Shown: one piece after another, positions 50,680-59,278 of the stretch
Layout of the letters: each line of letters begins with the position of its first letter
How positions within the stretch are numbered: position 1 is the stretch's first letter
Assembly: GCF_029866485.1 (NCBI RefSeq)
Contig: NZ_CP092332.1
Coordinates: forward strand, 1,984,001-2,048,000
From: Flavobacterium keumense
GTDB lineage: Bacteria; Bacteroidota; Bacteroidia; Flavobacteriales; Flavobacteriaceae
Reading direction: 5' to 3'
DNA length: 64,000 nt
Program-made: the position numbers and the translations under genes
The notes under the pieces: model-generated
What the model saw: the letters and a program-made list of their open reading frames with translations, nothing else
What the model was told of the DNA's origin: nothing
Database searches by the model: none

Positions 50680-51465
50680 ATGGAAACAATCAATCAAAAA
50701 ATTGCACACTTACAAGCAAATGGGTACGAATTGAAATTTGAAGAGGTATTCAATAAAGCATTCGAAAACTATAAAAAAATAGCACTTTATGCAGGTTTAG
50801 CTATTTTGGTTTTTGGTTTTCTTTTCATTTTTCTTGCGGCTATTGGAGTAGTTAGTTTTGTAGGCGCGGAGCATTTAAATGAAAATGTGATAAAACAACT
50901 TGAAGCTAAAATGCTAAAACAAGAATACCTTGATTACCAATTTATAGCTGTATTAGCTATCAATAGTCTTTTTAGTCCAATTAGTGCGGGCTTTTTAAAA
51001 ATGGCTGAATCTGCTGATAAAGATGTGGAATTTAAAATGCGTCAATTTTTCTCTTTTTACAAATGGACGTATTTCAAAGAATTATTTGTTGCTACTTTTA
51101 TCATTACTCTTTTGAGTACTGGCATCGATAGTGCATTAACTTTCTACAAAATTCCTGTATTAGGAGGAATTATTTCTTTTGCAATCGGAATAGTTACTGT
51201 TTTGAGTACGCCACTAATTATTTTTGGCAAACAAAAAGCGATTGCAGCTATAAAAGCAAGTATCAGTTTAACTAGCTCACAATTTCTAACGCTATTTCTA
51301 CTTTTATTCGTTGCTTTTTTAGGTTCTTTAGTCGGTTTGATTGGTTTTTGTATCGGTGTTCTTTTTACTATACCTTTCAATATGTCAATGCAATACGCTA
51401 TCTATGATACAGTTATTGGTATCGAAAATGAAGAAATTGTTGTTCCCGAATCAGAAGAAAACTAA
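50680..51465 (+). CDS. Multi-pass membrane protein, unknown
   Basis: 261 residues. Amphipathic N-terminus (METINQKIAHLQANGYELKFEEVFNKAFENYKK), then about five or six membrane helices (35-65, 90-110, 140-155, 165-190, 205-235). Resembles the GDPD-membrane-domain type of integral proteins with an acidic C-terminal tail. No catalytic signature. Converges on the 3' fragment of comM; stops overlap by 4 bp. Confidence 0.7.
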   Translation: METINQKIAHLQANGYELKFEEVFNKAFENYKKIALYAGLAILVFGFLFIFLAAIGVVSFVGAEHLNENVIKQLEAKMLKQEYLDYQFIAVLAINSLFSPISAGFLKMAESADKDVEFKMRQFFSFYKWTYFKELFVATFIITLLSTGIDSALTFYKIPVLGGIISFAIGIVTVLSTPLIIFGKQKAIAAIKASISLTSSQFLTLFLLLFVAFLGSLVGLIGFCIGVLFTIPFNMSMQYAIYDTVIGIENEEIVVPESEEN

Positions 51466-52160
51466 CCCAACCAACCGTCTCTGTCTAAACTTCGGTATTG
51501 TATCGCTTCGGCAATATGATGGGATGCTACTTTTTCAGCAGCTTCTAAATCGGCAATTGTTCGTGCTACTTTCAAAATTCGGTCATACGCTCGAGCGGAA
51601 AGATTCAATCGTTCCATTGCGTTTTTCAGTAATTCTTTAGAAGGTTCATCCAATGCACAAAATTCTCTAATCTGTTTGGTACTCATTTGAGCATTGTAAT
51701 GAATGGTTGGTATCAATTCAAAACGAGACGACTGGATTTCGCGAGCATTAGTTACTCTTTTCCGAATATCGACACTACTTTCTGCTTTTCTATCGTCTGA
51801 TAATTTATCAAATGGAACGGGTGTTACTTCAATATGAATGTCAATTCGGTCTAATAATGGTCCGGATATTTTATTCATATACCGTTGCATTTCGTGGGGA
51901 GAAGAAGTTTGAGGAGCATCCGGATCATTGAAAAAACCACTCGGACTCGGGTTCATACTCGCTACCAACATAAACGAAGATGGATAGGTAACCGTGAATT
52001 TAGCTCGTGAAATAGTCACTTCTCTATCTTCTAAAGGTTGTCGCATTACTTCGAGTACATCGCGCTTAAACTCTGGCAATTCATCCAAGAAAAGAATCCC
52101 ATTATGTGCCATCGAAATCTCTCCAGGCTGTGGATAACTCCCCCCGCCGACGAGAGCCAC
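51462..52160 (-). pseudogene. comM: comM (YifB-type AAA+ helicase), 3' fragment cut off by the insertion
   Basis: Continues the gene broken at 58433-59278. The first codon of the fragment is GTG, and its product would begin ALVGGGSYPQPGEI, which in intact ComM directly follows HHTIS(N/D)V. Walker B and sensor regions are here (NGILFLDELPEFKRDVLEVM; FMLVASMNPSPSGF), plus the C-terminal Mg-chelatase helical domain. 232 residues. Alone it lacks Walker A and any known start context, so it is probably not a working protein. Excision of the element would restore the frame with the 5' part. Confidence 0.93.
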
Positions 52161-52166
52161 GTTTGA
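52159..52166 (+). repeat. Left junction (attL) core repeat
   Basis: ACGTTTGA; its partner at 58440-58447 is ACATTTGA, differing at one base. Left of it is comM, right of it the element. The single mismatch narrows the crossover to either the AC or the TTTGA segment. Confidence 0.75.
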
Positions 52167-52182
52167 TAAATGTTATAATGTG
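52161..52182 (+). repeat. Left terminal inverted repeat
   Basis: The end begins GTTTG and contains TATAATGTG, matching (in inverted orientation, with a 4-base length difference between the two blocks) the right end at 58424-58441. Likely recombinase arm site. Confidence 0.55.
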
Positions 52183-52335
52183 GCGGATAAATTTATAATA
52201 CTTATTAACAGAATAATTCTTTTAAAATCAACGATTTAAGCATAATTAAGCTACTATATTGTTAATAAACTACTTAAACAGTTATACCGAAATTCTCTCT
52301 TTATCTAAACGATGTTTAACATAACAGTAGTAAAA

Positions 52336-52485
52336 ATGGAAGTAAAAAACAAACGCAAGGTAAAAGAAAAATTAATCGCTTTCAGATTAGCTGAAGCCGA
52401 ATTAAAGCAATTAAAAGATTATGCGAGTAAAACTAAATTGAACGTTAGTCAGTTCATAAGACTGATGACTATTGGACAAGCGTAA
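52336..52485 (+). CDS. Small ribbon-helix-helix DNA-binding protein
   Basis: 49 residues (or 57 if started at ATG 52312). A beta strand KLIAFRLAEAELKQLKDYA, then helix ASKTKLNVSQFIRLM, gives a typical RHH/CopG-MobC pattern. Such proteins act as repressors or as relaxosome accessory factors; no relaxase is present here, so a regulatory role is more likely. First gene after the left end of the element. Confidence 0.65.
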   Translation: MEVKNKRKVKEKLIAFRLAEAELKQLKDYASKTKLNVSQFIRLMTIGQA

Positions 52486-52489
52486 ATAA

Positions 52490-52567
52490 ATGGTTTTAGT
52501 ACTATTAGTATTAGTTTTCTTAATTCAAGAGCTAATAGAAATTAATAATAAAAAAAATAACAAATAA
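52490..52567 (+). CDS. Possible 25-residue membrane peptide
   Basis: ATG frame giving MVLVLLVLVFLIQELIEI followed by an Asn/Lys tail: a single hydrophobic helix and charged end. It lies between the RHH gene and the 166-residue gene with 4- and 9-bp gaps. Toxin-like small membrane peptides look similar, but length alone makes chance possible. Confidence 0.3.
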   Translation: MVLVLLVLVFLIQELIEINNKKNNK

Positions 52568-52576
52568 ATAGAAAAT

Positions 52577-53077
52577 ATGAAAAATCAAGTAGAAGTAAGT
52601 TTCAATCAAACAGCTTATGAGATTGACGCACAAGCATTAAAAGACAATTTGAATAAGTTGATTAAATCTTTAGATTATATAGAATTAATAACGTCTAAAC
52701 GAGAGCTATTAACTCTTGAACAAGTTGAACAAGTTATCATATCTAAAACAGGATTTAAGAATATTTTAATGTCTGCTACACTTCTTGGAGTTGAAACAGA
52801 GTATGCTTACTTACAACGCAATTTAGACGCTATTAGATTAGATGTTATTGAATTTAAGGATAACATACCAACTTTAAAAGATAGTGCTTTAGAAGAGCTC
52901 AAATCAATTCATACAACCTATTTAAAAGATGAATTAGTAAAAGACTATAATATTCTAAATGAAGCTTGTACAATTCTTAACAAACTGTCAAATCCAAGTT
53001 TCACAGATTGCTTAAATAGGAATTATCTCGGTCAGTGGAGCGTGAATATTTTAAAATTGAATAACTCAAATTTTTAA
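52577..53077 (+). CDS. Hypothetical element protein, 166 residues
   Basis: Unrecognised. Mostly helical, with heptad-like stretches (DAQALKDNLNKLIKSLDYIELI; KDSALEELKSIHTTYLKDELVKDYNIL). Acidic, no signal peptide, no catalytic motif. Part of the tightly packed rightward array of the element. Confidence 0.7.
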   Translation: MKNQVEVSFNQTAYEIDAQALKDNLNKLIKSLDYIELITSKRELLTLEQVEQVIISKTGFKNILMSATLLGVETEYAYLQRNLDAIRLDVIEFKDNIPTLKDSALEELKSIHTTYLKDELVKDYNILNEACTILNKLSNPSFTDCLNRNYLGQWSVNILKLNNSNF

Positions 53078-53081
53078 TAGA

Positions 53082-53336
53082 ATGGATAAGTACACACATA
53101 AAGCAGTGAACAAGACTTATATCTCAAGTGAGGAAATAAAAAGTAGGTTGGAGAAAATGAAACAATTAGATATAGAAGCTAAAGAGCCTGAATTTAATTT
53201 GATTATAATTCAAACTCCAAATGGCAATTTAAAAATAAAAACCAAGCTCACTAAAGAGCAATGGTTGGAGAAATATAAAAGTCAAGCCAAGAAAAAAGAT
53301 ATTGTGAAATTTAATTTAGATGAAAATGTTTTTTAA
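53082..53336 (+). CDS. Hypothetical element protein, 84 residues
   Basis: Unrecognised, lysine-rich, with a beta hairpin NLIIIQTPNGNLKIKTKLTKEQW in the middle. Starts 4 bp after the previous gene; its end overlaps the next gene by up to 17 bp, suggesting coupled translation. Confidence 0.65.
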   Translation: MDKYTHKAVNKTYISSEEIKSRLEKMKQLDIEAKEPEFNLIIIQTPNGNLKIKTKLTKEQWLEKYKSQAKKKDIVKFNLDENVF

Positions 53337-53526
53337 GAATAAAAAAAAGAAACCTCAACAAATGCAGGTTAGATTTACTCCAACACAGAGGATTGAAATA
53401 GCCAAGAAGTTAAAAATTGCAAGGTTCAATAGATTGACTACTGCACTACTAAAAGAAAAAGGAGTTTCCGCAGATGAAAAAGCAAGGTTGATAGTTCAGA
53501 TTAAAAAGAAATTACAAATTAAATAA
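53320..53526 (+). CDS. Hypothetical basic element protein, 68 residues
   Basis: Unrecognised and strongly basic. The segment QMQVRFTPTQRIEIAKKLKIARFNRLTTALL could be a strand plus two helices of the RHH type, but the match is weak. It overlaps the preceding gene by 17 bp (11 bp if ATG 53326 is used). Confidence 0.55.
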   Translation: MKMFFKNKKKKPQQMQVRFTPTQRIEIAKKLKIARFNRLTTALLKEKGVSADEKARLIVQIKKKLQIK

Positions 53527-53537
53527 AAAAAATATAG

Positions 53538-53855
53538 ATGAACATTTCAGAATATAACGCGGTGAACGGAAATAGCTATTACATAGATGTTAATAGTCCA
53601 GGAACGGAACCTGGAATAAAGGACATTGTTATTAGCTCACAGGATGCTACTAAAAGGAGTTGTTTGATTAGTTTCACTTTTACTAATAAACTTGGAGAAG
53701 AGGTTAAGACTTCTAGATACGTGCCATTTGGAGCCAAACAATTCGCTAAAGGTTGGTTTAGCTATAACACTAATACAACTGCTTGTTTAGTTTTTATTGA
53801 ATCGCTCTTAAACGCTCAAACTGCTTACGAGCAGGCTAATAATGTGACTTGGTAA
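53538..53855 (+). CDS. Hypothetical element protein, 105 residues
   Basis: Unrecognised. Beta-rich with an aromatic C-terminal third (PFGAKQFAKGWFSYNTNTTACLVFIESLLNAQTAYEQANN). A cysteine pair (SCLIS, TACLV) is separated by about 40 residues. No signal peptide. Base composition resembles its neighbours in the element. Confidence 0.65.
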   Translation: MNISEYNAVNGNSYYIDVNSPGTEPGIKDIVISSQDATKRSCLISFTFTNKLGEEVKTSRYVPFGAKQFAKGWFSYNTNTTACLVFIESLLNAQTAYEQANNVTW

Positions 53856-53903
53856 AAAATATAATAAAATAATAATAACAATAAATTAATAAAAAAAAAT
53901 ACA

Positions 53904-54377
53904 ATGACAGCACTAGTAAATCAAATGATAGTATCTCACATAAAGAGTTCTTTAAAACCAAATGACAAATTTTTTACAGCTCTTCAGTTCAGAAGCCTAT
54001 TAGAAGAGTTGACAGCAACAGAGTTGAAACAAGTAATATCACAACTTGAAAATAAATTAGATACAATTCACTTCTCACAATCACAAATCATTATAGACAG
54101 AGAGCAATTAATTGCACTCTATGACAGTATTTTTCTGAATGATAGTGAAAGGTACTTCACTTTCAATATATGCCTTCACGGAGCTTCTATTGATGTTAGA
54201 GAGGTTAGAATTGCAAGTAAAAAGAAATTCCAATTGAAGCAGGAAAAAACTGCTGAAAGTGTGAGAAGGTTCTACCGTTATGAGATGATTGAAGAGATTG
54301 AATCTATTTCTTTTTTCAATAGATTAAAGTACTTATTTAATCCAAACAGCTTGAGTAAAAAATTAAAAAATAAATAA
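53904..54377 (+). CDS. Hypothetical element protein, 157 residues
   Basis: Unrecognised. The N-terminal half looks helical (FRSLLEELTATELKQVISQLENKLD). The second half has mixed strands and a basic tail (RLKYLFNPNSLSKKLKNK). It follows a 48-bp A-rich gap, which may hold a ribosome-binding region; the next gene starts 2 bp after its stop. Confidence 0.65.
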   Translation: MTALVNQMIVSHIKSSLKPNDKFFTALQFRSLLEELTATELKQVISQLENKLDTIHFSQSQIIIDREQLIALYDSIFLNDSERYFTFNICLHGASIDVREVRIASKKKFQLKQEKTAESVRRFYRYEMIEEIESISFFNRLKYLFNPNSLSKKLKNK

Positions 54378-54379
54378 AA

Positions 54380-54649
54380 ATGGAACTACAAATAAATAAT
54401 ATAACTGATTTAGAGCAATTAGTAATTAAAGACAAGATAACACCATTACAAGCTGAAAAAATATTAATTAAGTCGTTAAATCTTTTAGCTGTTGATTTCG
54501 GTATTAAGACAGTGACGAAAGAACGTATTTTAAATACAATTGATGTATTGAAAAATAGTTTAGAAAATAACGAAGTACCTCTATTTAGTTTAAGTCAAAT
54601 TAGAGATGAAGCAATTCAGGAATATAGTATTAAAAATGTTTTTAAATAA
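54380..54649 (+). CDS. Hypothetical element protein, 89 residues
   Basis: Unrecognised, all-helical and acidic (NITDLEQLVIKDKITPLQAEKILIKSLNLLAVDFG). Starts 2 bp after the preceding stop. No motif. Confidence 0.6.
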   Translation: MELQINNITDLEQLVIKDKITPLQAEKILIKSLNLLAVDFGIKTVTKERILNTIDVLKNSLENNEVPLFSLSQIRDEAIQEYSIKNVFK

Positions 54650-54664
54650 TTAAAATAAAATAAA

Positions 54665-54934
54665 ATGGCATTCAAACAAGGTAATAATTTCGGTAGTAAA
54701 AGTAAAAGAGGTAAAGCTAAAATCAATAAAGAGTTAAAAGACTTTTTAGAAGTTTTAACATTTGAAGCATTAGAACAAATAGAGATAGATAAGCTGACTA
54801 ATAGTGAGAAACTTAAGTTTATTAATTACTCTTTACCGTATCTTTTAAATAGATTACAAGCGGTTGATTTAAACAGTGATACAGAGAATAATTTATTTAA
54901 GCCTGTTGTGATTAATATGGCTGATTGGAAATAA
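54665..54934 (+). CDS. Possible phage small-terminase-like or DNA-binding protein
   Basis: 89 residues. The N-terminus MAFKQGNNFGSKSKRGKAKINKEL is basic and glycine-rich, and is followed by helices (FLEVLTFEALEQIEIDKLTNSEKLKFINYSLPYLLNRL) and an FKPVVINM ending. This order recalls small proteins next to terminase genes in Bacteroidota phages. The resemblance is from memory and unproven. If correct it would point to a phage satellite, because no large terminase is present. Confidence 0.4.
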   Translation: MAFKQGNNFGSKSKRGKAKINKELKDFLEVLTFEALEQIEIDKLTNSEKLKFINYSLPYLLNRLQAVDLNSDTENNLFKPVVINMADWK

Positions 54935-54983
54935 CAAGTAATAATAACACAGAATAACGTAGAACGATATAAAACTGATATTT

Positions 54984-55394
54984 ATGCCTTTTAGTTTGAA
55001 AGATTTAGAGCAACTATCACAATATAAAAATCATACTATTAAATTTGATGGTTACGATTATTGGTGGTATAGTAAGATAGATAATAAATGGTCATTACAT
55101 TGTATTAAACCATTTAAGAGCTATCAACAAGGTTTAGAATATATTAAATATTGGTTGGTTAAATATGCTCAAGAAGTAATTAATAACGAAGCTATATTTG
55201 AAAGAATTACTGACAACGTCATAAAAGACGTTAATATATATGAAATAGCTAATAGTAATCTTAAGCCTTTAAATAAAGTAATTAAGATATTAGAAATTAG
55301 ACCTAATCTTAATCAAACAGAAATAAGCGAATATCTAAATATAACTAAAATGGCTGTTTCTAAACATTTTAAAAAGCTGAAATATGTCAGATAA
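54984..55394 (+). CDS. Winged-helix-like regulatory protein
   Basis: 136 residues. The N-terminal aromatic, beta-rich part (FDGYDYWWYSKIDNKWSLHCIKPF) is unrecognised. The C-terminus LNKVIKILEIRPNLNQTEISEYLNITKMAVSKHFKKL is a clear helix-turn-helix/winged-helix of the MarR/ArsR type. Its last 11 bp overlap the next gene, implying coupled expression. Possible controller of the element. Confidence 0.7.
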   Translation: MPFSLKDLEQLSQYKNHTIKFDGYDYWWYSKIDNKWSLHCIKPFKSYQQGLEYIKYWLVKYAQEVINNEAIFERITDNVIKDVNIYEIANSNLKPLNKVIKILEIRPNLNQTEISEYLNITKMAVSKHFKKLKYVR

Positions 55395-55935
55395 AAACAG
55401 AGGTGGCTTTAATTTAGATTATAGTGATGGATTTAATATTGAAGCTGAAAATTTCATTAAATACAAGTCAATCTTACAGCGTTTACTAACCGCTTCTAAT
55501 ATAGAATTAGTTACAAGAGGAATGATGGATAAAGAGTGTGGAATTGATGCGATAGCTAAAATAGAAAGTCAACATTACTTTATTGGTTTAAGATTTAGGA
55601 AAACTAAAAGAGATTTTAATTCTATAACACTTTCACGTCATATAAACGATTCAGCAAGTGAAGTAAAGAAGTTTTTAAGGAATAGATTAAGACCTGACTT
55701 TTTTATTCAAATAACAGAATTAATAAATCATATTAGAATTACTGAAGTGAATATTGATGCGTTTAATTTATTTTTAGAAAAAGCTTTTAAGGATGGTATT
55801 TTAGAGAAGTATTATAATAAAAAACTATTAGCTTATGAGTTTCCTTTAAATGATTTAGATAGCAATAAAAATAAAGTAATAGGCAATTATGGAATAAGGA
55901 ATTATTTAATAGAAAAAGACAAACTGTTTACTTAA
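55384..55935 (+). CDS. Nuclease-like hypothetical protein, 183 residues
   Basis: Unrecognised. The segment NIELVTRGMMDKECGIDAIAKIESQHYFIGLRFRKTKRDFNSITL has the order of a PD-(D/E)xK core: an early acidic turn, GID followed by a strand, then GLRFRK where the E/Q-x-K/R strand would be. The second acidic residue is replaced by Gly/Leu, so it may be degenerate or a different fold. It overlaps the upstream winged-helix gene. Confidence 0.5.
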   Translation: MSDKNRGGFNLDYSDGFNIEAENFIKYKSILQRLLTASNIELVTRGMMDKECGIDAIAKIESQHYFIGLRFRKTKRDFNSITLSRHINDSASEVKKFLRNRLRPDFFIQITELINHIRITEVNIDAFNLFLEKAFKDGILEKYYNKKLLAYEFPLNDLDSNKNKVIGNYGIRNYLIEKDKLFT

Positions 55936-56019
55936 TATACATTTTATAAATAGTTTAAAAATATTAAATAGTTTATTTTCAATAAGTTAACTTAATTTAG
56001 CTAATATTTTATATAAAAG

Positions 56020-56049
56020 TGTTTACATTTTATTATTATTATGTAAACA
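56020..56049. promoter_or_regulatory. Palindrome upstream of the tyrosine recombinase gene
   Basis: TGTTTACAT (56020-56028) and ATGTAAACA (56041-56049) form a perfect 9-bp inverted repeat with a 12-base AT spacer. The inner GTTTAC and GTAAAC are 22 bp apart, start to start. It overlaps the -33 region of the recombinase promoter and may be an operator, a recombination site or a weak terminator. A T-run follows. Confidence 0.6.
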
Positions 56050-56055
56050 TTTTTT

Positions 56056-56063
56056 TATATTTG
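56056..56063 (+). promoter_or_regulatory. Promoter -7 element for the tyrosine recombinase
   Basis: TATATTTG, perfect TAnnTTTG, 19 bp before the ATG. The palindrome at 56020-56049 sits directly upstream, where -33 would be. Confidence 0.6.
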
Positions 56064-56082
56064 TACTTTAAATTTATCTAAT

Positions 56083-56712
56083 ATGAAAACTAAACCACTA
56101 CCTATTCAAGAAGTAAAAGATTTTTATACAAACGAATTTTATTCAGTATTAGAAAGTAATATAGGATACAAGTATGAGAGATTAACAGAATGCTTATTAT
56201 TCACACTACAAGCTAAAACAGGATTAAGAATAAGTGATATTTTAGAATTAAAATATAGTAATCTAATTGATAAAGGTTTAGAAACTTATTTGGAATTAGT
56301 ACTAAAGAAAACTAAAAATACATTAACATTACCAATAGACAGAATAATGTTAAAGATGTTACAAGACTATAAAGAATATTGTAATTTAGTTTTTAATGTG
56401 GCTACTTCAGGAAATTCAAGTCAAGAAAGAATTTTTTATAATTACAAGTCTAATAATGGAAAGATTTTCTCTTATATGTGGTGTAATAAGAGAATTAACA
56501 AATTAAATAATTCAGGTGTATTAGGTAAAGTTTATGATAATGTAGGAACACACTCAATAAGAAAAGGATTAGCTGAATATCTATATACTAAAAAAGGATT
56601 AAGAACTACTCAATATTTATTAGGTCATAAAAGTATGTTAACCACTGAAATTTATTTAGAATTAGATAAGGAACAACATTTAAAAGATATTAAAGAAGCA
56701 TTAAGCATATAG
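56083..56712 (+). CDS. Compact tyrosine recombinase (Xer/phage integrase type)
   Basis: 209 residues, essentially only a catalytic domain with a short N-terminus. All catalytic positions are visible: Arg49 (TGLRISDI), Lys near 75-78 (KKTKN), His157 and Arg160 (THSIRKG), His182 (LLGHKS) and the nucleophile Tyr191 (TEIYLEL). Lacks the full N-terminal core-binding domain of most integrases. It is placed convergently to a serine recombinase inside the same element. It may invert or resolve DNA rather than mediate integration. Confidence 0.9.
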   Translation: MKTKPLPIQEVKDFYTNEFYSVLESNIGYKYERLTECLLFTLQAKTGLRISDILELKYSNLIDKGLETYLELVLKKTKNTLTLPIDRIMLKMLQDYKEYCNLVFNVATSGNSSQERIFYNYKSNNGKIFSYMWCNKRINKLNNSGVLGKVYDNVGTHSIRKGLAEYLYTKKGLRTTQYLLGHKSMLTTEIYLELDKEQHLKDIKEALSI

Positions 56713-56851
56713 GTGTTTTTTATTTATTTTTTAAAAAGGTTTACAAATTAATTTTTAAAAGTAAACTTTTTTACTTCTTAAGTATTGATTTTATTGACTT
56801 TTTAATTTCTATTATATAAAATTATTTCAATATTTAAACTAAAATACTTTA
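56713..56851. other. Region between the two convergent recombinase genes
   Basis: 139 bp, extremely AT-rich. Includes the second GTTTAC-16-GTAAAC palindrome and T-runs. No coding potential seen. Confidence 0.6.
56739..56766. repeat. Palindrome downstream of the tyrosine recombinase
   Basis: GTTTAC (56739-56744) and GTAAAC (56761-56766) are 22 bp apart start to start, the same spacing as in the palindrome upstream of the gene. An A-run precedes and a T-run follows. Consistent with a bidirectional terminator or with a recombinase/regulator site matched to the upstream copy. Confidence 0.55.
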
Positions 56852-58390
56852 TCACTTCTTATAAAAGTATCTATTATTAATTAAATATTCATTAGGAACG
56901 TCAATAATGTTTAGGTTTACACTTCCATATTCTATTAATTCATTATTTGACACATAACTTTCAATAAACTTATACATCTTATCAAACACATAAGTAAATA
57001 AAACCTTATCATTGAATGAAGTTATGTAGGAAATACAATATACATTATATGTATAATTAAACTCTATTCTTATATTGCTTATAATATTCTTGTAAGTAGT
57101 TTTATTTTCAGAGTTTAAAATGAACTTAATTTTAGATTGTATTTCTTCCTCTAATAGATTAATTGATTGTAATTTAATTTTAGCATCATTTTTACTTATA
57201 ATTCCATCAGCTATAAAATCTAATAAATTACTTCTTTTATTTTCCAATTCAATTAATTTGTCTTTTAAAGTATTAATTTCTAAAACGTCGTTATCGGTTT
57301 CTTTAATCAAATAAGAAGCGTTATCTATTATGTATTGATATTGTTTTTCATTTATGAAGTAATCAGTCAAACTTTCTAAAAAAGGAATATTAATACCTCT
57401 GTTATTACAATTAAGATGCTTATAACGTTTAGAACTACATATATAAGCGTTATCACGTTTATTTACTCTTGTTCTTCCGTAGTAGTTTCTTCCGCATTTA
57501 GAACACGTTAAAAAGCCTTTTAGTTTATAATTATGCGTTACTTTTTTTCCACTGTTATTTCTATTCCTTACTAGATTATCGTTTACCAACTGCCAATAAT
57601 CAGCAGATACAATTTCAGGAACTTTATAATCAATACCTTGAAAAACTCTAATACCTTTATAGATAGGATTTTTAATGATATGAAGTACAGTTGTACCGCT
57701 CCAACGTATCTCTTTTTTATTAATTGTTTTTAATTGTTTTAAGACATTATTTCTATTAGTAGTAGTTAGTGTTCCATTTAGCTTATTATAAGCTGTTAAT
57801 ACGCCTCTATTCGTTAATATTTCAGCAATGGAATTAGTGCCTTTACCACTTAAAGACAAACTAAAAATTTCTTTTATTATTTCAGCCTCTTCAGTATTAA
57901 TTTGAAATTTATTATTAACGTCTTTATTATATCCGTACGGTGGTAATGCGTGTACCTTTCCGTTTTCAGCATTAATTTGAATAGCGTTAACTATTTTCTC
58001 TTTAGTCAAATCTACAAACATACCATTAACAATACTTAATATGTTCATTAAGCCTTCAGTTTGCACATCTACATCTAAAAGCGTATTGAAAATATGAACG
58101 CTTATATTGAATTTTTTAAATTTAGTAAACAGGAATAACTTAACCTCAATACTTCTTTCTAAACGTGATTGGTCATATATCCAAACGTCTGTTATTATTT
58201 TACTTTCAATGTCTTTTAATAACTGAATTAATGACGGCCTATTGCTTGTAGTACCGCTGAAACCTTTATCGGTATATATCTTATATTCTTTACCTATTGA
58301 ATTAGCGTACTCGATTCCTTTTTTAGTTTGAGCATCAATAGAAATCTGTTTCTTTCTGTCTTTAGATATACGGCAATATATAGCTATCAT
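56852..58390 (-). CDS. Large serine recombinase (integrase)
   Basis: 512 residues from ATG at 58390, chosen because a promoter lies between it and an upstream in-frame ATG at 58426. N-terminal resolvase domain with nucleophile Ser9 (IAIYCRISKDR) and the SRLERS arginine region. A recombinase domain follows (HALPPYGYN ... INKKEIRWSGTTVLHIIKNPIYKG), then a zinc ribbon (FLTCSKCGRNYYG ... YICSSKRYKHLNC) and a coiled coil (about 395-440). Domain order fits phage/ICE integrases acting on short attP/attB. Located at the right end of the element next to the junction. Confidence 0.95.
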   Translation of the reverse strand: MIAIYCRISKDRKKQISIDAQTKKGIEYANSIGKEYKIYTDKGFSGTTSNRPSLIQLLKDIESKIITDVWIYDQSRLERSIEVKLFLFTKFKKFNISVHIFNTLLDVDVQTEGLMNILSIVNGMFVDLTKEKIVNAIQINAENGKVHALPPYGYNKDVNNKFQINTEEAEIIKEIFSLSLSGKGTNSIAEILTNRGVLTAYNKLNGTLTTTNRNNVLKQLKTINKKEIRWSGTTVLHIIKNPIYKGIRVFQGIDYKVPEIVSADYWQLVNDNLVRNRNNSGKKVTHNYKLKGFLTCSKCGRNYYGRTRVNKRDNAYICSSKRYKHLNCNNRGINIPFLESLTDYFINEKQYQYIIDNASYLIKETDNDVLEINTLKDKLIELENKRSNLLDFIADGIISKNDAKIKLQSINLLEEEIQSKIKFILNSENKTTYKNIISNIRIEFNYTYNVYCISYITSFNDKVLFTYVFDKMYKFIESYVSNNELIEYGSVNLNIIDVPNEYLINNRYFYKK

Positions 58391-58409
58391 AATTATACTT
58401 TTAGAGCTA

Positions 58410-58417
58410 CAAATATA
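58410..58417 (-). promoter_or_regulatory. Serine recombinase promoter inside the right end
   Basis: Minus-strand TATATTTG, with a TTTG at 58437-58440 exactly 19 bp upstream as the -33. The -33 is within the GTTTG of the terminal repeat next to the junction core, so promoter and att site are physically joined. Confidence 0.65.
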
Positions 58418-58423
58418 AATAAA

Positions 58424-58441
58424 CACATTATATCAACAAAC
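58424..58441 (-). repeat. Right terminal inverted repeat
   Basis: Read inward on the minus strand it starts GTTTG, then TTGA, then TATAATGTG. The left end holds GTTTG and TATAATGTG in the same order. Imperfect inverted pair. Confidence 0.55.
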
Positions 58442-59278
58442 ATTTGAGATCGTATGGTGCGGACTACGAAATGGACGCTGATTCATCAACCCCACTTCTT
58501 TTAATTTTCCTGCAACGCTATGAATTTTAGTAGTTTCTAAAGCTTCACGCAAAGTCATGGGAGGCAAAATACTTGGTAATCGTTTGGCTAACATGGTCTT
58601 TCCAGCTCCAGGTGGACCAATCAAAATAATATTATGCCCACCGGCTGCGGCGATTTCCATACAACGCTTAATGCTTTCCTGACCTTTGACATCCGAAAAA
58701 TCAAACTCTGGAAAATCTAAAGTTTTATAAAATTCGGCTCTAGTATCAATTGTAGTGGGTTCTATAGTTCCTTTGCCTTCAAAAAAATCAATTACTTCTT
58801 GGAGATTTTCCACACCATACACGTCTAAGTCAGAGACAATAGCGGCTTCTTTTACATTTTGCTTGGGCAAAAAGAATCCTTTAAATCCTTCTTCCTTGGC
58901 TTTTATTGCTATAGGCAGGGCACCTCGAATAGGCTGTAAACTTCCATCAAGAGACAATTCGCCCATAATTATGTACCGCTCAATTTCATCTCCTTTAATT
59001 TGAGAGGAGGCGATTAGAATCCCAATAGCTAAAGTCAAATCATAAGCCGAACCTTCTTTTCGTAAATCAGCGGGAGCCATATTAATAGTAATTTTTTTTC
59101 CTGGTAAAGCATAGCCATTATTCTTCAACGCAGCGGCAATTCGATAACTACTTTCTTTAATGGCATTATCAGGTAAACCTACTAAATGATAACCTATTCC
59201 TTTGTCTATATTTACTTCAACTGTAATCGTAGTCGCTTCAACTCCAAAAACAGCACTTCCAAAAACTTTAGTCAGCAT
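58433..59278 (-). pseudogene. comM: comM (YifB-type AAA+ helicase), 5' fragment
   Basis: 281 codons ending after HHTISNVC where the element begins; the final Cys and TGA are element-derived. Contains the N-terminal Lon-like fold (EVNIDKGIGYHLVGLPDNAIKESSYRIAAAL), the MAPADLRKEGSAYDLTLA region and Walker A GPPGAGKT (221-228). It lacks Walker B. ComM is a branch-migration helicase for natural transformation in other bacteria. The fragment could be expressed as a truncated protein, probably inactive. Confidence 0.94.
58440..58447 (+). repeat. Right junction (attR) core repeat
   Basis: ACATTTGA, matching ACGTTTGA at 52159-52166 with one mismatch. Left is the element, right is comM. Confidence 0.75.

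What the first reader, a model, noticed from the sequence alone, without database searches (positions are those of the whole stretch)
52159..58439. Small integrative element splits comM between Walker A and Walker B
Seen: the two comM parts (58433-59278 and 51462-52160) join in frame into about 511 codons if 52159-58439 is removed. The break falls at the conserved HHTIS(N)V-ALVGGG, between Walker A (5' part) and Walker B (3' part), so neither part can be an ATPase. Known: comM (YifB) is a branch-migration helicase in natural transformation, and comM is also an insertion target for resistance islands in Acinetobacter. In Listeria, phage A118 sits in comK and can leave reversibly. Inference: integration in a competence gene by a serine recombinase could switch a DNA-uptake trait on or off in Flavobacterium.
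Basis: partly seen in the sequence, partly recalled or inferred. Interest (0 to 1): 0.85.

Follow-up and report, generated by a model that had tools for sequence, protein, structure and literature searches.

The report
Mobile element inside transformation gene comM
A small piece of mobile DNA has cut itself into comM, a gene that helps bacteria build incoming DNA into their chromosome; several unrelated kinds of mobile element hit this same gene in related bacteria, which suggests that breaking it may suit them.

Summary
In a single-contig Flavobacterium-type genome a 6,281-bp element splits comM at codon 279, between Walker A and Walker B; near relatives have the intact gene there. The element encodes an intact-looking large serine recombinase (LSR) and mostly ORFs without known relatives. 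comM is hit repeatedly in the genus: 23 firm insertions among about 353 genomes read, at six or more positions, 18 with an LSR beside the break, others with tyrosine-type integrases or Tn7-like genes; recN, dprA and comEC were almost never broken in the samples checked. LSRs in comM are already known (Durrant 2022), as are Tn7-like and tyrosine elements in comM (Faure 2023) and the idea that this protects elements from removal by transformation (Croucher 2016). Deleting the Riemerella comM cut transformation about 130-fold (PMC8459023). New member of a known kind; the many-site convergence of several machineries on one gene in one genus is the interesting part.

The parts
58433..59278 (-). comM 5' part (codons 1-279, ChlI/Lon-like domain and Walker A)
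51462..52160 (-). comM 3' part (codons 280-511, Walker B and C-terminal domain)
58440..58447 (-). 5' junction, shared block TCAAATGT; proposed core AA at 58443-58444
52159..52166 (-). 3' junction, shared block TCAAACGT; proposed core AA at 52162-52163
58424..58432 (.). att inverted-repeat arm (CACATTATA on +), partner at 52174-52182
   Evidence: sequence
52174..52182 (.). att inverted-repeat arm (TATAATGTG on +)
   Evidence: sequence
56852..58390 (-). large serine recombinase, 512 aa from the ATG of MIAIYCRIS (frame open to a GTG at 58426): Resolvase, Recombinase, Zn_ribbon_recom
58410..58439 (-). promoter-like TTG-N-TATATTTG (Bacteroidota consensus recalled) a few bases from the crossover, reading into the recombinase
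   Evidence: consensus from memory
56083..56712 (+). short tyrosine recombinase (XerC-like catalytic part, 209 aa)
52312..52485 (+). 57-aa ribbon-helix-helix protein (NikA-like just over the Pfam cut-off; MbpA below cut-off; phage repressor PHROG 876, E 1e-5); candidate directionality factor or repressor (inference)
52577..53077 (+). 166-aa ORF without family match
53082..53336 (+). 84-aa ORF (weak PADLOC NsnC match, E 0.001)
53320..53526 (+). 68-aa ORF, weak NikA-like match (E 0.019, below cut-off)
53538..53855 (+). 105-aa ORF without family match
53904..54377 (+). 157-aa ORF, absent from the other 397 genus genomes searched and from IMG/VR by the scan used
54380..54649 (+). 89-aa ORF without family match
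54665..54934 (+). 89-aa ORF (weak likeness to an ORF in G303, E 0.002)
54984..55394 (+). 136-aa ORF with C-terminal winged HTH
55384..55935 (+). 183-aa ORF (Pfam only a below-cut-off chance-like match; weak likeness to an ORF fragment in G047, E 0.004)

Best explanation
A 6.3-kb integrative element, moved by its own large serine recombinase, has integrated site-specifically at codon 279 of comM and leaves two dead pieces of the gene. The break is shown by sequence; integration by this recombinase is inferred from anatomy and from nine other genomes of the genus with the same site. Loss of ComM should leave DNA uptake in place (comEC and dprA are intact here) but strongly lower the building-in of incoming DNA, above all of DNA that differs from the resident copy (inference from other species). 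The element belongs to a recurrent pattern in this genus, in which different mobile elements settle in comM at many positions; the likeliest reason is that a host without ComM cannot easily delete the element by recombining with DNA from element-free neighbours (inference, proposed before by others).
For: Clean split and empty sites in relatives. LSR domains. Ten genus genomes, window included, are broken at site 279, with an LSR beside comM in all ten. Of nine att sites compared, the best dyad centre is at the same position in 7 and tied for best in 2. Other comM sites with LSRs: 16/17, about 145, about 216, 476; other machineries: tyrosine integrase in G037 (about 206), an integrase-like gene in G310 (389), TnsA/TnsB-like/TniB/TniQ in G056 and G306 (about 282). 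One LSR clade holds three comM sites. Controls: recN one short frame in 150 printed rows of 157 matching genomes; dprA and comEC no insertion seen in 108 and 110 matching genomes; comM 10 of 140 readable in G000-G159. None of six sites lies in the top tenth of conserved comM DNA; site 279 is at the 19th percentile. comM deletion in Riemerella: 5.4e-5 to 4.2e-7 (PMC8459023).
Against: No functional test; F. johnsoniae was not transformable under the conditions of PMC7965970, so competence of the host is unproven. Only 8 of 125 Recombinase-domain matches in 160 genus genomes sit in comM, so most LSRs do not need it. Taken alone, the dyad of the window att site is no better than in shuffles (335 of 500 as high), nor are those of G395, G210 and G317. 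The window LSR's clade has 92/89 support and long branches; it is not in the clade of most site-279 LSRs. comM is also lost or decayed without a visible element in some genomes.
Confidence: 0.72

Rival explanations
1. Neutral safe harbour: comM is dispensable and codes for conserved stretches, so recombinases that happen to fit it survive; loss of ComM brings the element nothing.
For: comM is absent or decayed without a visible element in some genomes (no match in G338, G373, G041, G020; stops, frameshifts or deletions in G052, G158, G239, G270, G279, G331). Faure 2023 itself suggests that the Walker B motif is a natural conserved anchor (passage).
Against: recN, dprA and comEC are hardly ever split, though only three genes were compared and two of them are competence genes; the sites used are not unusually conserved; several machineries and several LSR sites in one gene.
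Confidence: 0.3
2. Regulated switch: the element leaves precisely under some condition and restores comM, like phage A118 in Listeria comK or developmental excision elements.
For: The frame would rejoin exactly; the recombinase looks intact; whole-gene dN/dS 0.022 shows no clear decay; a possible directionality factor (RHH protein).
Against: No phage genes, no excised copy and no known directionality factor found. In G150 the halves are inverted 723 kb apart, and in G056, G306 and G228 codons of comM appear lost, so those breaks cannot be undone by simple excision.
Confidence: 0.1
3. The split is an assembly error or a contaminating contig.
For: None found.
Against: Single contig of 2.54 Mb, syntenic flanks on both sides, the same site in nine other genomes of the genus and in Salegentibacter.
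Confidence: 0.01
4. The two ComM pieces still work together, or one alone.
For: Both frames stay open without stops.
Against: Walker A and Walker B lie on different pieces; the 3' piece begins in mid-domain; start signals for it were not searched for.
Confidence: 0.03

Closest known systems
Large serine recombinases that target the magnesium chelatase-like gene (Durrant et al. 2022, PMC10083194; passages)
   Same: LSR, site-specific, same target gene family; the paper says homologs of this gene are targeted by 12.4% of predicted site-specific integrases and that competence genes are enriched among targets
   Different: Its main text has no word beginning Flavobacteri or Bacteroid, and the passages read describe no set of several sites in this gene; its supplement was not readable here
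Tn6022 (Tn7-like, TnsF) and Tsy in comM (Faure et al. 2023, PMC10293859; passages); AbaR and other MGEs in Acinetobacter comM (Mazzamurro et al. 2024, PMC11472951; passages)
   Same: Same target gene and same expected loss of ComM; Tn7-like TnsA/TnsB-like/TniB/TniQ genes also lie in comM of G056 and G306
   Different: The window element has no Tns genes; TnsF sites overlap Walker B, this break lies upstream of it
Phage WO sr1WO in the Wolbachia magnesium chelatase gene (PMC9203015; passages)
   Same: Serine recombinase, same gene family split
   Different: A full prophage; no phage structural match in the ten window ORFs scanned
Prophages in comYC, comFA and comK, and MGEs in comM (Croucher et al. 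2016, PMC4774983; passages)
   Same: Intragenomic-conflict reading, convergent hits on competence genes
   Different: The comM cases with a known integrase in the passage share one integrase type and an orthologous location; here several machineries and sites occur in one genus
XisF and CcrB/CcrA recombinases (NCBIfam)
   Same: Best named relatives of the window recombinase by profile
   Different: Scores far below the curated cut-offs (90 against 375; 66 against 900), so not members

Membership tests
LSR-borne element in comM/Mg-chelatase gene | LSR with resolvase, recombinase and zinc-ribbon domains | tested here: met
LSR-borne element in comM/Mg-chelatase gene | Target gene split cleanly with a short shared core; empty site in relatives | tested here: met
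LSR-borne element in comM/Mg-chelatase gene | Same recombinase lineage recurs at the same site | tested here: inconclusive
   The site recurs in nine other genus genomes, but the window LSR groups with that of G395 (92/89), apart from the seven other site-279 LSRs in the tree; G202's LSR was not in the tree
LSR-borne element in comM/Mg-chelatase gene | Recombinase shown to integrate attP into attB | not testable with these tools
   needs an assay
Reversible comK/A118-type switch | Prophage genes | tested here: not met
   no structural PHROG for 10 ORFs (the two recombinases were not scanned there); no phage DNA match; no IMG/VR relative
Reversible comK/A118-type switch | Regulated precise excision | not testable with these tools
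   no reads
Tn6022/AbaR-type Tn7-like transposon | TnsA/TnsB/TnsC/TniQ genes | tested here: not met
   none in the window element
ICE or mobilisable element | Relaxase or conjugation genes | tested here: not met
   only a 57-aa NikA/MbpA-like RHH protein, no relaxase

The most novel reading that the evidence does not exclude
In Flavobacterium the function of comM, not its DNA sequence, is what mobile elements are selected to remove: LSRs of one clade have changed their site within the gene, other LSR lineages, tyrosine recombinases and Tn7-like transposons reached it on their own, and very small elements such as this one (6.3 kb, cargo without known relatives) persist mainly because they disarm transformational curing.
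Probability: 0.4. Interest if true: 0.7.

Novelty: new member of a known kind. Interest (0 to 1): 0.5.

Why it matters
Whether mobile elements break competence genes for their own good is an open question. One genus with 23 firm natural breaks in one gene, at six or more places, by several unrelated machineries, with intact sister species, makes it testable by comparing the loss of elements with and without ComM. It also supplies several new recombinases with inferred att sites.

Tried and rejected
Phage, satellite or ICE origin of the cargo: beyond HTH/RHH proteins and the two recombinases no match over a cut-off in Pfam or NCBIfam, none in PADLOC but one weak one, only weak ones in PHROGs (not every ORF was given to every library). 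Whole element as DNA: none in phage records; one 149-base 71% match in a Candidatus Stammera record, AT-rich, taken as chance. IMG/VR scans with the LSR, the 183-aa and 157-aa ORFs and the tyrosine recombinase: no relative; with the clade A LSR alignment: two contigs. Against ORFs of the fetched loci only two weak matches besides the integrase likeness. Rfam at gathering scores: nothing.

'Conserved DNA explains the choice of site': percentiles of the six sites 16/17, 145, 216, 279, 389, 476 were 74, 33, 72, 19, 87, 43 (36 ungapped intact genes kept of the 48 loci given; G092, G303 and G104 are held twice among the 48). Not supported, but recombinases may read only a few bases.

Denominators of the Fisher tests are hand counts: 140 of G000-G159 and 100 of G000-G111 had a readable comM. 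10/140 against recN 1/150 gives p 0.004 (0/150: 0.0006); 8/100 against dprA 0/108 p 0.002. The 23 firm breaks are among about 353 genomes with an open-frame reading (hand count); six more with only one half or contig-end evidence (G001, G028, G055, G131, G169, G227) and the pseudogenes were left out. About 45 of 398 genomes were not read or had no match. G325 was seen only from the 3' side, G202 from the two sides in two records of the same contig.

Structure prediction of two cargo ORFs never ran: machine busy.
Full report
Observation. Pfam Mg_chelatase is cut between positions 88 and 89 of 207. G092, G303 and G104 carry an unbroken comM; window flanks align up to the site from both sides without insert. 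The comM parts are 98-99% (5' part) and 96-97% (3' part) identical to those of G092 and G303. Of 21 genomes in the relatives search (window included), 19 matched: 17 had frames over 500, the window 236, and G001 329 at a contig end.

Element. 6,281 bp, G+C 25.7% against 33-34% in the flanks. The recombinase starts about 50 bp from the junction on the comM 5' side and reads in the direction of comM, as in G210; in seven of the nine others at this site it lies beside the 3' part and reads away from it, and in G395 it lies beside the 3' part and reads towards it. A short tyrosine recombinase and about ten small ORFs complete the element. The 157-aa ORF was sought in 398 genomes and found only here; it, the 183-aa ORF and the tyrosine recombinase found no relative in IMG/VR. 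The other ORFs were compared only with family libraries and the loci fetched.

Site. One search shows the junctions of ten genomes at codon 279 (G202 from the 5' side only). The two ends of each element share at least the first two letters of that codon: AA in eight of the nine with both ends, AG in G317, whose comM has AGT there. In Salegentibacter (L177) the shared codon is GAT. The best dyad centre of the joined element ends falls between those two letters in 7 of 9 (G000, G249, G150, G102, G265, G154, G317) and ties for best in G210 and G395. Taken singly, five of the nine dyads are rarely matched by shuffles (0 to 24 of 500) and four often are (147 to 477), the window among the latter (335); what counts for the window is the shared centre. 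Its arms CACATTATA/TATAATGTG resemble the TATAATGTGTGG arm of G150 and G102.

Spread in the genus. comM 3' part: match in 377 of 398 genomes; open frames were read for about 353. Firm breaks: site 279 in G000, G249, G210, G150, G102, G265, G154, G317, G395, G202; about 145 in G188, G166, G106; about 216 in G047, G267, G038; about 206 in G037; 218/282 in G056; 207/282 in G306; 389 in G310; 476 in G091; 211/461 in G228; 16 in G325: 23 genomes. Where both halves lie on one contig in one orientation they are 3.6 to 58 kb apart; in G150 they lie 723 kb apart on opposite strands. G395 and G106 are mixed assemblies with a second comM copy. An LSR lies at the break in 18 of the 23. G037 has a tyrosine integrase beside the break; G310 a gene with a Phage_int_SAM_5 match exactly at that model's cut-off; G056 and G306 TnsA, TnsB-like, TniB and TniQ genes, although the 5' end of G056 looks like a site-216 LSR end; in G228 a toxin-like AHH protein and an Imm11 immunity protein stand in place of the middle of comM (two genes scanned, no recombinase seen).

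Named genomes. A scan of species genomes with ten clade-A LSRs gave 20 loci. Thirteen have comM beside the LSR and one more (L168) matches only its first 26 codons: among them F. panici, F. hibisci, F. notoginsengisoli, F. aquaticum, F. chilense, F. aquicola, F. nitrogenifigens and, outside the genus, Salegentibacter lacus at site 279 with an element of about 6.4 kb. Nine of the 13 are genomes of the genus set under their own names. In F. nitrogenifigens comM also breaks off at codon 476-477, so it is probably hit twice. Six show no comM: L167 (beside a YbaB-like gene), L170 (Lutibacter), L173, L174, L175 and the weak L178.

Tree. In a tree of 45 LSRs a clade of 13 (100/100) holds sites 16, 145 and 279 plus two LSRs not seen in comM; the three site-216 LSRs form their own clade (100/100); site 476 stands alone on a long branch; the window LSR groups with that of G395 and with one not in comM (92/89), inside a group otherwise not in comM. 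The well-supported branches force four changes of the label 'site 279'; the simplest reading is two gains and two losses, but fewer gains with more losses are not excluded. Since clade A holds three comM sites, its site has changed at least twice, within comM or by way of other targets. Long branches make the deepest joins unsure.

Controls. recN (157 of 160 genomes matched, 150 rows printed): one short frame, in a 450-contig genome, not looked into. dprA: 108 of 112 matched, one copy in two overlapping frames in a 590-contig genome. comEC: 110 of 112, one with two stops (G026) and two shorter frames in fragmentary genomes, not looked into. The eight genomes of G000-G111 with a firm comM break all keep dprA and comEC in long open frames; the window genome is one of them. 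G041 lacks all three genes. Over 160 genomes 8 of 125 Recombinase-domain matches (73 genomes) lie in comM: far more than one gene in thousands would draw by chance, yet most are elsewhere.

Age. dN/dS of comM between window and G092 is 0.022 over the whole gene, against 0.018-0.023 between intact pairs; by halves it is 0.007 (5') and 0.063 (3'), the latter above the 0.023-0.035 of intact pairs, on few changes. So there is no clear decay, perhaps a slight loosening of the 3' half; the insertion is young or reversible, and the data do not tell which.

Mechanism. Shown: the break, the LSR, the recurrent site. From literature: ComM is a helicase that helps recombination of heterologous DNA after uptake (PMC11472951, passages); deleting the Riemerella gene RA0C_RS07335 (YifB family; called ComM in PMC7965970) lowers transformation from 5.4e-5 to 4.2e-7 (PMC8459023, passages). 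Inferred: the window strain would take up DNA but recombine it poorly, and the element gains by not being replaced. F. johnsoniae could not be transformed in one study although it has many of the genes (PMC7965970, passages).

Known or new. LSRs in this gene family are a known and common theme (PMC10083194); so are TnsF/Tsy elements in comM (PMC10293859), AbaR and others (PMC11472951), sr1WO (PMC9203015) and the conflict model (PMC4774983). The listings of searches for comM with Flavobacterium and natural transformation, comM with Flavobacterium and genomic island, and Mg chelatase with competence, integrase, insertion and Bacteroidetes showed no report of this pattern in Flavobacterium (open-access library only). 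The element is therefore a new member of a known kind.

Noticed in passing
L121:1046-3639 (G228): The middle of comM (codons about 212-460) is replaced by an AHH-nuclease toxin-like gene and an Imm11 immunity gene.
   Followed up: partly
G150:C1:2693765-2694604 and 3416675-3417367: The two comM halves lie 723 kb apart on opposite strands: a large inversion with an end in an LSR element.
   Followed up: no
L163 (F. nitrogenifigens): comM appears to be broken at two sites, 279 and 476/477.
   Followed up: partly
L102:1747-3258 (G056): A 504-aa protein with an N-terminal Hcp (TssD) domain sits just inside the element in comM.
   Followed up: no
G041: Genome listed as 99% complete without a match for comM, dprA or comEC: competence apparently lost as a whole.
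   Followed up: no
L127 and L167: Clade-A-like LSRs beside the same YbaB-like gene (name recalled from the sequence): perhaps the same genome held twice, perhaps another target.
   Followed up: no
G000:C1:85169, 99803, 627745, 2186720: Four further Recombinase-domain matches in the window's own genome, outside the window.
   Followed up: no
G032:C1:127433-127666: Intact comM with a second copy of its last 78 codons about 1.2 kb downstream, like an integration that rebuilds the gene end.
   Followed up: no
L177:4950-11380 (Salegentibacter lacus): A second very small comM element of about 6.4 kb with an LSR and a separate resolvase.
   Followed up: partly
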